Assembly: GCF_015689175.1 (NCBI RefSeq)
Contig: NZ_CP065047.1
Location: forward strand, 4,340,001-4,404,000
Origin: Mycobacterium kubicae
GTDB taxonomy: Bacteria > Actinomycetota > Actinomycetes > Mycobacteriales > Mycobacteriaceae
Direction of reading: 5' to 3'
DNA: 64,000 nucleotides
In this document: piece by piece, positions 31,275 through 39,124 of the stretch
Numbering within the stretch: the stretch's first letter is position 1
Layout: the number at the start of each line of letters is the position of its first letter
The notes under the pieces: model-generated
Databases searched by the model: none
The model's input: the letters and a program-made list of their open reading frames with translations, nothing else
Told to the model about the DNA's origin: nothing
Position numbers and translations under genes: made by a program

Positions 31275-33545
31275 GTGACCGCAAAACCATTTTCCGCCAC
31301 CATCACCGGCTCTCCCCGCATCGGCCCGCGCCGCGAACTCAAACGCGCAACCGAGGGCTACTGGGCCGGGCGCACCAGCCGATCCGACCTGGAGTCCGTC
31401 GCCGCCACTTTGCGCCGCGACAGCTGGTCAGACCTGGCCGCCGCCGGATTGGACTCGGTGCCGATCAACACCTTCTCCTACTACGACCAGATGCTCGACA
31501 CCGCCGTCATGCTCGGCGCCCTGCCGGCCCGGGTCAACCAGGTCCCCGACGAACTGGACCGCTACTTCGCGGCCGCGCGCGGCACCAGCGAGATCTCCCC
31601 GCTGGAGATGACGAAATGGTTCGACACCAACTACCACTATCTGGTTCCCGAGATCGGGCCCTCGACCAAGTTCGCACTGCACCCCGACAAGGTGCTGTCG
31701 GAACTCAAAGAGGCGCAGGAACAGGGAATTCCCGCCCGCCCGGTGCTCATCGGGCCGGTCACCTTCCTGCTGCTGAGCAAGGCGGTGGAAGGCGGTGCTG
31801 CCCCCATCGACCGCTTGGAAGAACTGCTGCCGATCTATGCCGAACTGCTGTCCCTGCTCGCCGACAGCGGCGCGGCATGGGTCCAGCTCGACGAACCGGC
31901 GCTGGTCACCGACATCTCCGCCGATGCACCCGCGTTGGCCGAGCGGATGTACACCGCGCTGGGATCGCTGCGCAACCGGCCGGCCCTGTATGTGGCCACC
32001 TACTTCGGCGACCCGGGCGCGGGCCTGGCCGCGCTGGCCCGCACACCGGTGGAGGCAATCGGGGTCGACCTGGTGGCCGGCGCCGATACCGCGATCGCAG
32101 GGGTTCCCGAATTGGCCAGTAAGACGCTGGTCGCCGGCATCGTCGACGGACGCAACATCTGGCGGACGGATTTGGAGGCGGCTCTGGGCAAGCTCGCGAC
32201 GCTGCTCGGTTCGGCGGCCAACGTCGCCGTGTCGACATCGTGCTCGACGCTGCACGTCCCGTATTCACTCGAGCCGGAAACCGAGTTGGATGACAACCTG
32301 CGCAGCTGGCTGGCTTTCGGCGCCGAGAAGGTGACCGAGGTGGTGACCCTGGCGCGGGCACTACGGGATGGCCGCGATGCGGTCGCCGACGAGATCGCGG
32401 CGTCCAATGCGGCCGTGGCCTCCCGCAAGCGCGACCCACGCCTGCACAACGGCCAGGTCCGGGCTCGCATCGCCTCCATCGCCGCTTCCGGCGCCCACCG
32501 CGGCGACTCGGCGAAGCGCCGCGCCAGCCAGGAGGCGCGGCTGCACCTGCCGCCGTTGCCCACCACGACAATCGGCTCGTACCCGCAGACATCGGCAATC
32601 CGCAAGGCGCGCGCGGCTTTTCGGGCCGGTGAGATCGACGAGGCGGAATACGAGCGGCGGATGAAGGCCGAGATCGCCGACGTCATCAAGTTGCAGGAAG
32701 AGCTCGGCCTGGACGTGCTGGTGCACGGCGAGCCGGAGCGCAACGACATGGTGCAGTACTTCGCCGAGCAATTGCAGGGCTTCTTCGCCACCCAGAACGG
32801 CTGGGTGCAGTCCTACGGCAGCCGGTGCGTGCGTCCGCCCATCCTCTACGGCGACGTGGTTCGCACTCACCCCATGACCGTCGACTGGATCAAATACGCG
32901 CAGTCGCTGACCGACAAGCCGGTCAAGGGCATGCTCACCGGACCGGTCACCATCCTGGCGTGGTCATTCGTGCGCGACGACCAGCCGTTGGCCGACACCG
33001 CCAACCAGGTGGCGTTGGCCATTCGCGACGAAACCGTGGATCTGCAGTCCGCGGGCATCGCGGTGATTCAGGTCGACGAACCCGCGTTGCGTGAGCTGCT
33101 GCCGCTGCGTCGCGCCGACCAGGAAGACTACTTGCGGTGGGCCGTCGGCGCGTTTCGGCTGGCGACCTCTGGCGTCGCCGATTCGACGCAGATCCACACC
33201 CACCTGTGTTACTCCGAATTCGGTGAGGTGATCGGCGCCATCGCTGATCTCGACGCCGACGTCACCTCCATCGAGGCGGCCCGGTCGCACATGGAGGTGC
33301 TCGACGACCTGAATGCCGTCGGCTTCGCCAACAGCGTGGGCCCGGGCGTCTACGACATCCACTCGCCGCGGGTGCCCAGTACCGGCGAGATGGCCGAGTC
33401 GCTGCGGGCGGCGTTGAGAGCCGTTCCGCAGGAACGGCTTTGGGTCAACCCCGACTGTGGCCTGAAGACCCGCAACGTCGACGAGGTGATCGCGTCGTTG
33501 AAGAACATGGTGGCCGCCGCGCAGGAGGTCCGGGCGCAGGTCTAG
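31275..33545 (+). CDS. metE: Cobalamin-independent methionine synthase
   Basis: 5-methyltetrahydropteroyltriglutamate-homocysteine methyltransferase, 756 residues, forming methionine without B12. The duplicated barrel structure is complete: N-terminal half from TITGSPRIGPRRELKRA, then the C-terminal half from TTTIGSYPQTSAIRKAR. Zinc ligands are seen as THLCYSE (His about 643, Cys about 645) and NPDCGLKTR (Cys about 728). GTG 31275 is the start. The TAG stop at 33543-33545 lies inside the 6-bp target duplication of the downstream IS481-family element; the coding sequence is unchanged, but whatever transcription terminator lay behind it is now about 5.6 kb away. Confidence 0.97.
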   Translation: MTAKPFSATITGSPRIGPRRELKRATEGYWAGRTSRSDLESVAATLRRDSWSDLAAAGLDSVPINTFSYYDQMLDTAVMLGALPARVNQVPDELDRYFAAARGTSEISPLEMTKWFDTNYHYLVPEIGPSTKFALHPDKVLSELKEAQEQGIPARPVLIGPVTFLLLSKAVEGGAAPIDRLEELLPIYAELLSLLADSGAAWVQLDEPALVTDISADAPALAERMYTALGSLRNRPALYVATYFGDPGAGLAALARTPVEAIGVDLVAGADTAIAGVPELASKTLVAGIVDGRNIWRTDLEAALGKLATLLGSAANVAVSTSCSTLHVPYSLEPETELDDNLRSWLAFGAEKVTEVVTLARALRDGRDAVADEIAASNAAVASRKRDPRLHNGQVRARIASIAASGAHRGDSAKRRASQEARLHLPPLPTTTIGSYPQTSAIRKARAAFRAGEIDEAEYERRMKAEIADVIKLQEELGLDVLVHGEPERNDMVQYFAEQLQGFFATQNGWVQSYGSRCVRPPILYGDVVRTHPMTVDWIKYAQSLTDKPVKGMLTGPVTILAWSFVRDDQPLADTANQVALAIRDETVDLQSAGIAVIQVDEPALRELLPLRRADQEDYLRWAVGAFRLATSGVADSTQIHTHLCYSEFGEVIGAIADLDADVTSIEAARSHMEVLDDLNAVGFANSVGPGVYDIHSPRVPSTGEMAESLRAALRAVPQERLWVNPDCGLKTRNVDEVIASLKNMVAAAQEVRAQV

Positions 33546-33546
33546 C
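33541..33546 (+). repeat. Left target-site duplication of the IS481-family element
   Basis: TCTAGC, identical to 39119-39124. It contains the metE stop codon TAG. The 6-bp length fits IS481-family insertion. Confidence 0.85.
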
Positions 33547-33606
33547 TGTAGTGCCCAGGGTCGTTGGTTGAGATGTGACGACACGCTGTAGCGGTCGTTG
33601 ATGGGT

Positions 33607-33668
33607 GAAGGTCTCCTGTCGTGGAGTGGAGCTGCTACCACTGCACCCACAACGAACAGGAGACCTTC
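33607..33668 (+). promoter_or_regulatory. Hairpin sequestering the transposase ribosome-binding site
   Basis: GAAGGTCTCCTGT (33607-33619) is the exact complement of ACAGGAGACCTTC (33656-33668), a 13-bp stem. The right arm contains AGGAGA, the Shine-Dalgarno of the GTG at 33669. In RNA made by read-through from outside the IS, the stem would hide the ribosome site. Transcripts starting inside the loop would escape. This is the same logic as in IS10 and IS50. Confidence 0.7.
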
Positions 33669-38390: not shown

Positions 38391-38938
38391 CCACCAACAC
38401 CACCCATGCCCTCGACGCGATGATCGACGGACGACGAGCCGACTCCACCAGACGCCGCCAACGCGTCCTTTCCGCCCTCGAGGTCGCCATCAAAGACGGC
38501 GCAGAACTCAGCGCCACCAGCATCGCTCAACGCGCCGGAGTCGACCGCACCTTCCTATACCGCCACCGCGACCTGCTCGAACGCATCCACGCCGCTGCAA
38601 CCCAGCCACCAGACAAATCCGAGATCGGTCACCAGGTCACCCGTGCCTCACTGCAGGCCGACTTGCTCGCCGCCCAGCACCGCTGCACCCGCATGGCCGC
38701 ACGCACCCAACAACTCGAGATCCGTCTGTCTGAACTGCTCGGCGAACAAGCATGGCGCGCAAGCGGACTCGGCGCGCCAACCGACATCGAGCAACTTCAG
38801 CAACGCATCGTCACGCTCGAACAACAAATCGTCGAGCTACGGCTGCAACTCGAAGAACGCGACCAAGACCTCACCGCCGCCCGCGCCGCCAACCGCGAAC
38901 TTATGGCCCAGCTCAACCTCTCCCAGCCGACCGGCTGA
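38387..38938 (+). CDS. tnpC: TnpC-like accessory protein (DUF6262 type)
   Basis: A 183-residue protein with an N-terminal helix-turn-helix-like segment (SATSIAQRAGVDRTFLYRHR, TetR-like in pattern) followed by a long coiled coil (about 95-175, repeated LEQQIVELRLQLEERDQDL). TnpC in Tn554 influences orientation and efficiency of transposition. Starts at ATG 38387, overlapping the TnpB stop by four bases. Its coding strand is very C-rich on third positions, like TnpB. Confidence 0.82.
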   Translation: MTTNTTHALDAMIDGRRADSTRRRQRVLSALEVAIKDGAELSATSIAQRAGVDRTFLYRHRDLLERIHAAATQPPDKSEIGHQVTRASLQADLLAAQHRCTRMAARTQQLEIRLSELLGEQAWRASGLGAPTDIEQLQQRIVTLEQQIVELRLQLEERDQDLTAARAANRELMAQLNLSQPTG

Positions 38939-39053
38939 CAAATGAGTCCTTGCACCACACCTGTTGCGCACCATATTCTTCAGCAGCCAGCCGCGCGAAC
39001 TGCGGAAACACCGGGACACTACCGCGACTCAGGCCGCGAGCCCAAGAGAACCG

Positions 39054-39123
39054 TCCACACTCCGCAATCGGCAAGACCCCACCCATCACACGGTTGACCA
39101 ACCTGCCTGAGCAGTACATCTAG
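39054..39123 (+). pseudogene. IS481-family transposase, 3-prime part (split gene)
   Basis: Encodes PHSAIGKTPPITRLTNLPEQ plus YI, the conserved C-terminal tail of this transposase group, cut off from its body by the Tn554-like insert. The final codon ATC and the TAG stop extend across the IS end (39118) into the right copy of the target duplication, so the stop codon is supplied by the host site. Confidence 0.88.
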
Positions 39124-39124
39124 C
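39119..39124 (+). repeat. Right target-site duplication of the IS481-family element
   Basis: TCTAGC, identical to 33541-33546. Before insertion this stretch, with the metE stop codon, ran directly into the hairpin region at 39127. Confidence 0.85.

What the first reader, a model, noticed from the sequence alone, without database searches (positions are those of the whole stretch)
33541..39124. Tn554-like transposon nested inside an IS481-family transposase gene
Two layers of insertion can be read directly. The outer IS has 18/25 matching terminal repeats (33547 and 39118) and a perfect TCTAGC target duplication. Its transposase breaks after TYNHHR and its C-terminus reappears 4.5 kb later. 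Removing exactly 34592-39053 restores a 330-codon frame, with ACCG at both junctions. The insert carries only tnpA-tnpB-tnpC, so it gives a clean view of a mycobacterial Tn554-type att site within an IS.
Basis: partly seen in the sequence, partly recalled or inferred. Interest (0 to 1): 0.75.

Follow-up and report, generated by a model that had tools for sequence, protein, structure and literature searches.

The report
Transposon that homes into transposase genes
A small Tn554-like transposon sits inside the transposase gene of another mobile element in this mycobacterial genome, at conserved codons that its close relatives also hit in several different insertion sequences, and each copy carries a six-base trace that looks like its previous address.

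Summary
The two-layer insertion is real. A Tn554-type element (tnpA-tnpB-tnpC, no cargo) lies in an IS481-family transposase gene; that IS has 18/25 terminal repeats and a TCTAGC duplication. The boundaries need a 3-bp correction: the body is 34595-39050 (4456 bp), flanked by two different 6-bp cores, CCGGCA (34589-34594) and CCGTCC (39051-39056). Three more copies with identical bodies exist in the genome, two in copies of the same IS and one in a different IS481-family transposase at the same motif. Unoccupied copies indicate that the left core is the target's and the right core is brought in, the rule published for Tn554-type and SE elements. Fragments of the sister branch sit at catalytic-arginine codons of tyrosine recombinase genes (10 of 12 by model), and two relatives there in DDE transposases. 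Five truncated genus junctions gave one confirmed transposase, three with the motif only and one unproven. I found no report of this targeting in nine literature searches. New variant of a known kind; movement itself is inferred from sequence.

The parts
33541..33546 (.). left copy of the outer IS target duplication TCTAGC (overlaps the stop codon of metE)
   Evidence: metE by NCBIfam
33547..33571 (+). outer IS, left terminal repeat (18/25 with the right one)
33621..34591 (+). IS481-family transposase, N-terminal and DDE part up to YNHHR
   Evidence: NF033577 E 7.6e-93; rve and rve_3
34589..34594 (+). left core CCGGCA = core of the unoccupied site in L034 and L035
34595..39050 (+). Tn554-type element body, 4456 bp, identical in the four genome copies and in a 4456-bp M. 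scrofulaceum contig (L084)
   Evidence: 0 differences, 5 sequences
34595..34604 (+). left end TTTTCTGGGG
34729..35901 (+). tnpA, 390-aa tyrosine recombinase; R212, H329, R332, H355, Y364 in columns invariant in 13 aligned sequences (window plus 12 relatives)
   Evidence: PF00589 E 4.3e-27; alignment A1; catalytic roles recalled
35898..38390 (+). tnpB, 830-aa large tyrosine recombinase
   Evidence: PF00589 E 5e-10; 112/498 identical to the Enterococcus TnpB-like protein
38387..38938 (+). tnpC, 183 aa, DUF6262
   Evidence: PF19776 E 4.1e-10; BLASTP 7e-08 to the Enterococcus TnpC-like protein
39041..39050 (+). right end CCCAAGAGAA (imperfect inverse of the left end)
39051..39056 (+). right core CCGTCC, absent from the unoccupied site; same as the core of the second target (L029 left junction, L036 unoccupied)
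39057..39118 (+). IS481 transposase C-terminal codons and right terminal repeat (39094-39118)
39119..39124 (.). right copy of the outer IS target duplication TCTAGC

Best explanation
34595-39050 is a self-contained Tn554-type transposon. Its two tyrosine recombinases (TnpA, TnpB) with TnpC most likely copy the element out as a circle whose joint holds the 6 bp that flanked its LEFT end at the donor. They then insert the circle into a 6-bp core at conserved codons of IS3/IS481 transposase genes (YNxx[R/H]xH; the core covers the [R/H] codon plus its neighbours). The target's own 6 bp stay at the left end and the donor's 6 bp end up at the right. The branch of elements to which this one belongs uses that transposase motif as attachment site. 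Shown here from sequence: body boundaries, cores, target motif, frame, orientation, and agreement of target type with the tnpA tree. Inferred: the circle, the order of strand exchange, donor retention, and activity today.
For: Identical 4456-bp bodies (5 sequences, 0 differences) with different cores and flanks. Four targets have an unoccupied copy: own outer IS (two copies), own second IS481-family IS (one), and two IS types occupied in M. scrofulaceum (unoccupied in own genome and WUMAC-067 for one, in M. scrofulaceum for the other). The right core differs from the unoccupied core in 4 of 4; the left core equals it in 2 of 2 readable left junctions. All 4 M. scrofulaceum right junctions, in 3 IS types, carry CCGTCC, as do the 3 own copies in the outer IS. 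In the own genome the site motif was found in 14 of 26 rve_3 loci, with 7 distinct cores; CCGTCC is 1 of 7 and is the core of the IS that holds copy L029. Target class: 13 of 14 left-flank fragments match rve, rve_3 and the IS3 and IS481 models; the one without a match is the 38-aa L094 piece. All 14 end in the YNxx[R/H] motif in the same codon phase on the + strand; that frame is the longest open one at the junction in 12 of 14, ties in L095, and is 38 aa in L094. YN (HN in L085 and L089) lies 11 bases before the core in 13 of 14 (14 bases in L092). 10 of 10 right flanks translated read xHxxxG. Tree: the 14 transposase-target rows are one side of a branch (94/90), 1 change against a shuffled mean of 12.0, as low in 0 of 500. 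The published 6-bp/7-bp rule is the same (PMC10214605, PMC12486829, PMC9345347; passages read).
Against: No experiment and no reads spanning a circle. The donor of CCGTCC is not proven: the second IS was not found in M. scrofulaceum (0 matches, 40 of 94 candidates scored), so one shared donor site for both genomes is not supported. The three own copies inside the outer IS could be one insertion multiplied by the IS. Left junctions of the M. scrofulaceum copies are missing from the assembly. M. simiae gave no unoccupied copy. Five further left ends from the genus search (truncated copies, not in the tree) are weaker: L195 has an rve_3 match, L196, L198 and L229 show only the motif, and L209, whose core does not fit the codon pattern, gave no family match in two frames and may lie outside a transposase. 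Four of the 14 tree labels (L066, L086, L088, L094) rest on the motif, not on a model.
Confidence: 0.86

Rival explanations
1. The element inserted only once into this IS, and the IS then carried it (a 5572-bp IS481::Tn unit) to the three places in this genome. This rival concerns the spread of three copies and is compatible with the best explanation.
For: The three nested copies are identical over IS flanks and body; L028 has a perfect TCTAGC duplication around the whole unit, and all three units are 5572 bp; intact IS copies could supply transposase.
Against: Separate insertions from one donor into the same IS would give the same junctions, so the data do not decide. It does not explain L029 or the M. 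scrofulaceum copies, which sit in other IS types.
Confidence: 0.55
2. The right hexamer CCGTCC is a fixed part of the element, not a brought-in core; L029 merely mutated.
For: Seven of the eight right junctions of this exact element that I read carry CCGTCC: 3 of 4 own copies and 4 of 4 M. scrofulaceum junctions.
Against: L029 differs from it at 3 of 6 bases while the 4456-bp body has no difference. The assembled M. scrofulaceum repeat contig ends before the hexamer. Right hexamers of relatives vary, and all 10 read fit the target codon pattern, against 7.6% of window hexamers.
Confidence: 0.05
3. Insertion is nearly random; copies inside IS transposases are just the ones that survive because an IS is dispensable.
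For: Broken IS genes are cheap to the host; the genome is rich in IS (26 rve_3 matches).
Against: Same codon phase, same orientation and nearly the same spacing from the YN codons in transposases down to 15% identical to the window's; the sister branch hits another fixed codon pair in recombinase genes.
Confidence: 0.04

Closest known systems
Tn554 family (Tn554, Tn552-II and kin)
   Same: tnpA-tnpB-tnpC in that order on one strand; one normal and one very long tyrosine recombinase; DUF6262 TnpC in the Enterococcus comparison trio; donor's left core brought to the right end.
   Different: Only 21-22% identity over the aligned parts; TnpB 830 instead of 630 aa; no cargo; target is a transposase motif, not a radC-type gene; core 6 bp, where PMC12486829 gives 7 bp for Tn552-II.
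Actinobacterial Tn554-related transposons defined by recombinase clustering (PMC3414803)
   Same: One long and one normal recombinase, often with a TnpC-like gene, in Mycobacterium, Rhodococcus and Streptomyces (passages read). This element most likely belongs there.
   Different: In the passages read no ends, cores or target genes are given; they only suggest several similar attB sites where there are several copies.
SE elements (strand-biased circularizing integrative elements; PMC10214605, PMC9345347)
   Same: 6-bp core, left-of-donor to right-of-target rule; one SE entered insJ of IS3 in E. coli (passages read).
   Different: Four core genes, Gammaproteobacteria, T-rich or G+A-rich core regions; the passages read report no transposase-motif rule.
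GInt and RIT elements
   Same: Several tyrosine recombinase genes in a row.
   Different: [quoted passage not shown] GInt: four genes (passages). Not the layout here.

Membership tests
Tn554 family | tnpA-tnpB-tnpC on one strand, TnpA of normal size, TnpB very long | tested here: met
   390, 830, 183 aa, overlapping frames; Enterococcus trio 361, 630, 125 aa
Tn554 family | homology of all three proteins to Tn554-type proteins | tested here: met
   BLASTP 3e-23, 9e-21, 7e-08; weak, 21-22% identity; the comparison trio was recognised by layout and JAB-domain neighbour, it carries no annotated Tn number
Tn554 family | no duplication of the target core; donor's left core brought to the right end | tested here: met
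   4 targets with unoccupied copies: right core foreign in 4 of 4, left core = target in 2 of 2; that the foreign core came from a donor's left side is matched only by L029 in the own genome
Tn554 family | insertion in radC (att554) | tested here: not met
   targets are IS3/IS481 transposase genes; so it is a Tn554-related element, not a Tn554
Tn554 family | circular intermediate | not testable with these tools
   no reads or PCR
SE elements | four core genes intA-tfp-intB-srap | tested here: not met
   three genes, no gene between tnpA and tnpB
IS481 family (outer element) | IS481 transposase, terminal repeats, NCTAGN duplication | tested here: met
   NF033577 E 7.6e-93; 18/25 repeats, TCTAGC; the NCTAGN preference of the family is recalled

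The most novel reading that the evidence does not exclude
There is a lineage of Tn554-type 'transposons of transposons' whose attachment sites are the best-conserved codons of other mobile elements' enzymes. One branch reads the YNxx[R/H]xH codons of IS3/IS481 transposases, and its sister reads the Gly-[Leu/Met/Ile] codons before the catalytic arginine of tyrosine recombinases, or DDE_5 transposase motifs. Each jump silences a competitor element and leaves a 6-bp record of the previous address, so transposition genealogies can be read from single genomes.
Probability: 0.62. Interest if true: 0.75.

Novelty: new variant of a known kind. Interest (0 to 1): 0.62.

Why it matters
Site-specific elements are usually described with one host gene or tRNA as address (recalled). 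Here the address appears to be a protein motif shared by two large IS families, so the element has many possible homes and does no harm to host genes. The sister branch chooses active-site codons of other recombinases, so target switching within one recombinase family can be studied on a tree. The 6-bp right core appears to be a heritable record of the previous site, which would make donor-recipient histories readable. Knowing the ends and cores also lets annotators tell 'broken transposase' from 'occupied attachment site'.

Tried and rejected
Considered and rejected: a fixed right end including CCGTCC (L029 and relatives vary); chance nesting (same codon phase in unrelated IS); RIT or GInt membership (layout differs). 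A single master copy in the second IS for both own genome and M. scrofulaceum was my own idea; it is weakened because that IS was not found in M. scrofulaceum. Whether the IS carried the insert or the insert entered three IS copies could not be decided. Left junctions in M. scrofulaceum could not be read, and M. simiae had no unoccupied copy. Literature: nine searches listed no paper whose title or abstract start describes transposase-motif or recombinase-motif targeting by Tn554-related elements; many subscription papers are not in that library. I read only passages of PMC10214605 (and its abstract), PMC3414803, PMC12486829 and PMC9345347; of the others only search listings. Murphy's original Tn554 papers were not seen.

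Rows dropped before counts: of the 79 loci, 43 were given a target label (13 IS3/IS481, 11 recombinase, 2 DDE_5, 17 'other', several of the last with no gene identified). 17 were near-copies or the bare body of labelled elements, and 19 had no readable end or no clear target (for example L091, L100, L101, L109, L136, L137, L144, L150, L154, L155). Rows from other calls were added (L028, L066, L067, L030, L070, L075, L077). In the tree L085, L111 and L127 were left out as identical proteins and L031, L146 and L162 as too short, leaving 45 rows. Labels by motif alone: L066, L086, L088, L094 (transposase); L077, L097, L099, L116 (recombinase; L077, L097 and L116 gave no Pfam match). L142 and L153 were called LigD by likeness to L133, not by a scan; the tRNA target of L138 was read by eye.

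Full report
What is there. The outer element (33547-39118) is an IS481-family insertion sequence at the end of metE (NCBIfam methionine synthase models). Its terminal 25-mers match at 18 positions, which 4 of 200,000 random pairs from the same region reach, and TCTAGC flanks it on both sides. The left frame scores E 7.6e-93 against NCBIfam's IS481 transposase. Inside it lies an element with three overlapping genes: a 390-aa tyrosine recombinase, an 830-aa recombinase and a 183-aa DUF6262 protein. Five positions that I take for the catalytic ones of TnpA (recalled) fall in columns invariant in the 13 aligned sequences.

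Where the edges are. The own genome (6.0 Mb, 3 contigs) holds four full copies. Their 4456-bp bodies, and a 4456-bp contig of Mycobacterium scrofulaceum (L084), have no difference. What differs begins outside TTTTCTGGGG on the left and CCCAAGAGAA on the right. So the body is 34595-39050, and 6 bp on each side belong to something else. The M. scrofulaceum contig stops at both edges and a WUMAC-067 contig (L085) at the right edge, as expected of a repeat with varying surroundings.

The cores. The unoccupied IS (L034, L035) reads CACCA-CCGGCA-ACACTCC. The occupied left junction is CACCA-CCGGCA-TTTTCT and the right junction AGAGAA-CCGTCC-ACACTCC. The fourth own copy, L029, is in a different IS481-family transposase (NF033577 E 1.8e-78). 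The unoccupied copy L036 reads CACAG-CCGTCC-CCACCAG; the left junction keeps CCGTCC and the right junction has ACGCCG. In genome G062, which I identify with M. scrofulaceum from matching contig lengths and positions, four right junctions in three IS types all have CCGTCC. Unoccupied copies of two of these IS have CCGCCT (own genome and WUMAC-067) and CCGACC (G062 itself); the third IS gave none. Thus the right core is foreign in 4 of 4 targets with an unoccupied copy, and the left core is the target's in 2 of 2 readable left junctions. Among eight elements of the branch with both cores read, none has equal cores. The right cores of ten elements all fit the target pattern N-(CGN|AGR|CAY)-CN, which 4842 of 63,995 window hexamers fit (7.6%). 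They look like earlier addresses in the same kind of gene.

The target class. A scan of one genome per GTDB species with the TnpA alignment gave 79 loci (96 relatives, best 80 kept). Genus searches found TnpB matches at E 1e-60 in 22 of 297 genomes, left-end matches in 19 of 396, some of only 35 bases, and right-end matches in 7 of 396. For 14 copies with a left-flank fragment, 13 match rve, rve_3 and the IS3 and IS481 models; the one without a match is the 38-aa L094 piece. All 14 end in YNxx[R/H] (HNxxH in L085 and L089) in one phase and one orientation; that frame is the longest open one at the junction in 12, ties in L095 and is short in L094. Ten of ten right flanks read xHxxxG. The transposases are as little as 15% identical to the window's. 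Eighteen of 19 left cores fit the codon pattern; L209 does not. L209 and four other truncated genus copies were checked at the end: L195 has an rve_3 match, L196, L198 and L229 show only the motif, L209 has no family match in two frames. So L209 may be an exception.

The sister branch. Relatives with TnpA mostly 65-75% identical sit, in the opposite orientation, at the codons Gly-[Leu/Met/Ile] just before the catalytic arginine of tyrosine recombinase genes. 10 of 12 left fragments match PF00589 (L077 and L097 do not), and G1, R3 and E6 are invariant in all 12. Two more are in DDE_5 transposases. The own genome has one, L030, inside a recombinase gene related to tnpA itself (48 of 154 aligned columns identical). 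Its two cores are equal, CATCCC, so it says nothing on polarity. More distant relatives sit in LigD-type ligase, Ku, DprA or ISL3 transposase genes.

Tree. With 45 TnpA rows, the 14 IS3/IS481-target rows are one side of a branch (bootstrap 94, SH-aLRT 90; 92% of bootstrap trees). The recombinase and DDE_5 rows form a branch of 99/96. The nine target groups need 9 changes against a shuffled mean of 26.2, as low in 0 of 200. Near-copies make any label cluster, but the rows come from several families. Labels were read from the flanks, not from the tree; 10 of the 14 transposase labels and 9 of the 13 recombinase labels rest on protein models, the others on the motif.

Relation to what is known. 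The Enterococcus trio on NZ_CP059807, next to a JAB-domain gene, has 361-, 630- and 125-aa proteins, the last annotated DUF6262. BLASTP E-values to the window's three proteins are 3e-23, 9e-21 and 7e-08. PMC3414803 defines actinobacterial Tn554-related transposons; PMC10214605, PMC9345347 and PMC12486829 describe the left-to-right core rule with experiments (passages read). The mechanism is therefore known by analogy. What I did not find in print, in nine searches, is the choice of transposase or recombinase codons as attachment site.

What stays open. Whether the IS moved the insert around the own genome, or the insert entered three IS copies, cannot be told. The CCGTCC donor in the own genome may be L029, because its left core matches and only 1 of 7 distinct cores (14 of 26 rve_3 loci read) is CCGTCC. 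The same IS was not found in M. scrofulaceum, so the shared CCGTCC there needs another donor, or an element that arrived already carrying it. The host is inferred to be a Mycobacterium from its grouping with M. scrofulaceum. For that reason no interrupted gene was put together.

Noticed in passing
L026, L027, L034, L035 (own genome), e.g. L034:1285-2388: An IS110-family element (NF033542, E 2.5e-61 for the L034 copy) sits beside the same IS481 copies, apparently inside the CTAG of their target duplications (CT^AG), on one or both sides and in opposite orientations.
   Followed up: partly
L031:8641-14751: tnpB of a sister-branch Tn554-type element is itself split at its YRH box by about 6.1 kb with three large ORFs (497, 575, 822 aa), the first recombinase-like. 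In several other genomes TnpB matches also break at query residues 615-618.
   Followed up: partly
window 37740-37760 (TnpB): TnpB reads YAYRH where the Enterococcus TnpB-like protein reads HAFRH, so the first histidine of the H-x-x-R box is a tyrosine.
   Followed up: no
L129, L133, L143, L127, L135, L138: More distant relatives sit in DNA ligase (LigD-type), Ku, DprA and ISL3 transposase genes and perhaps in a tRNA gene (L138, by eye).
   Followed up: partly
window 31275-33546: The outer IS entered at the stop codon of metE; the TCTAGC duplication keeps the TAG.
   Followed up: partly
L030:3943-4440 and 8933-9658: A Tn554-type element nests in a recombinase gene related to tnpA, at its catalytic-arginine codons.
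   Followed up: partly
L209 (G264:C158): A truncated left end whose flank has TACAAC at the usual spacing but a core off the codon pattern and no family match in two frames; a possible exception to the target rule.
   Followed up: partly
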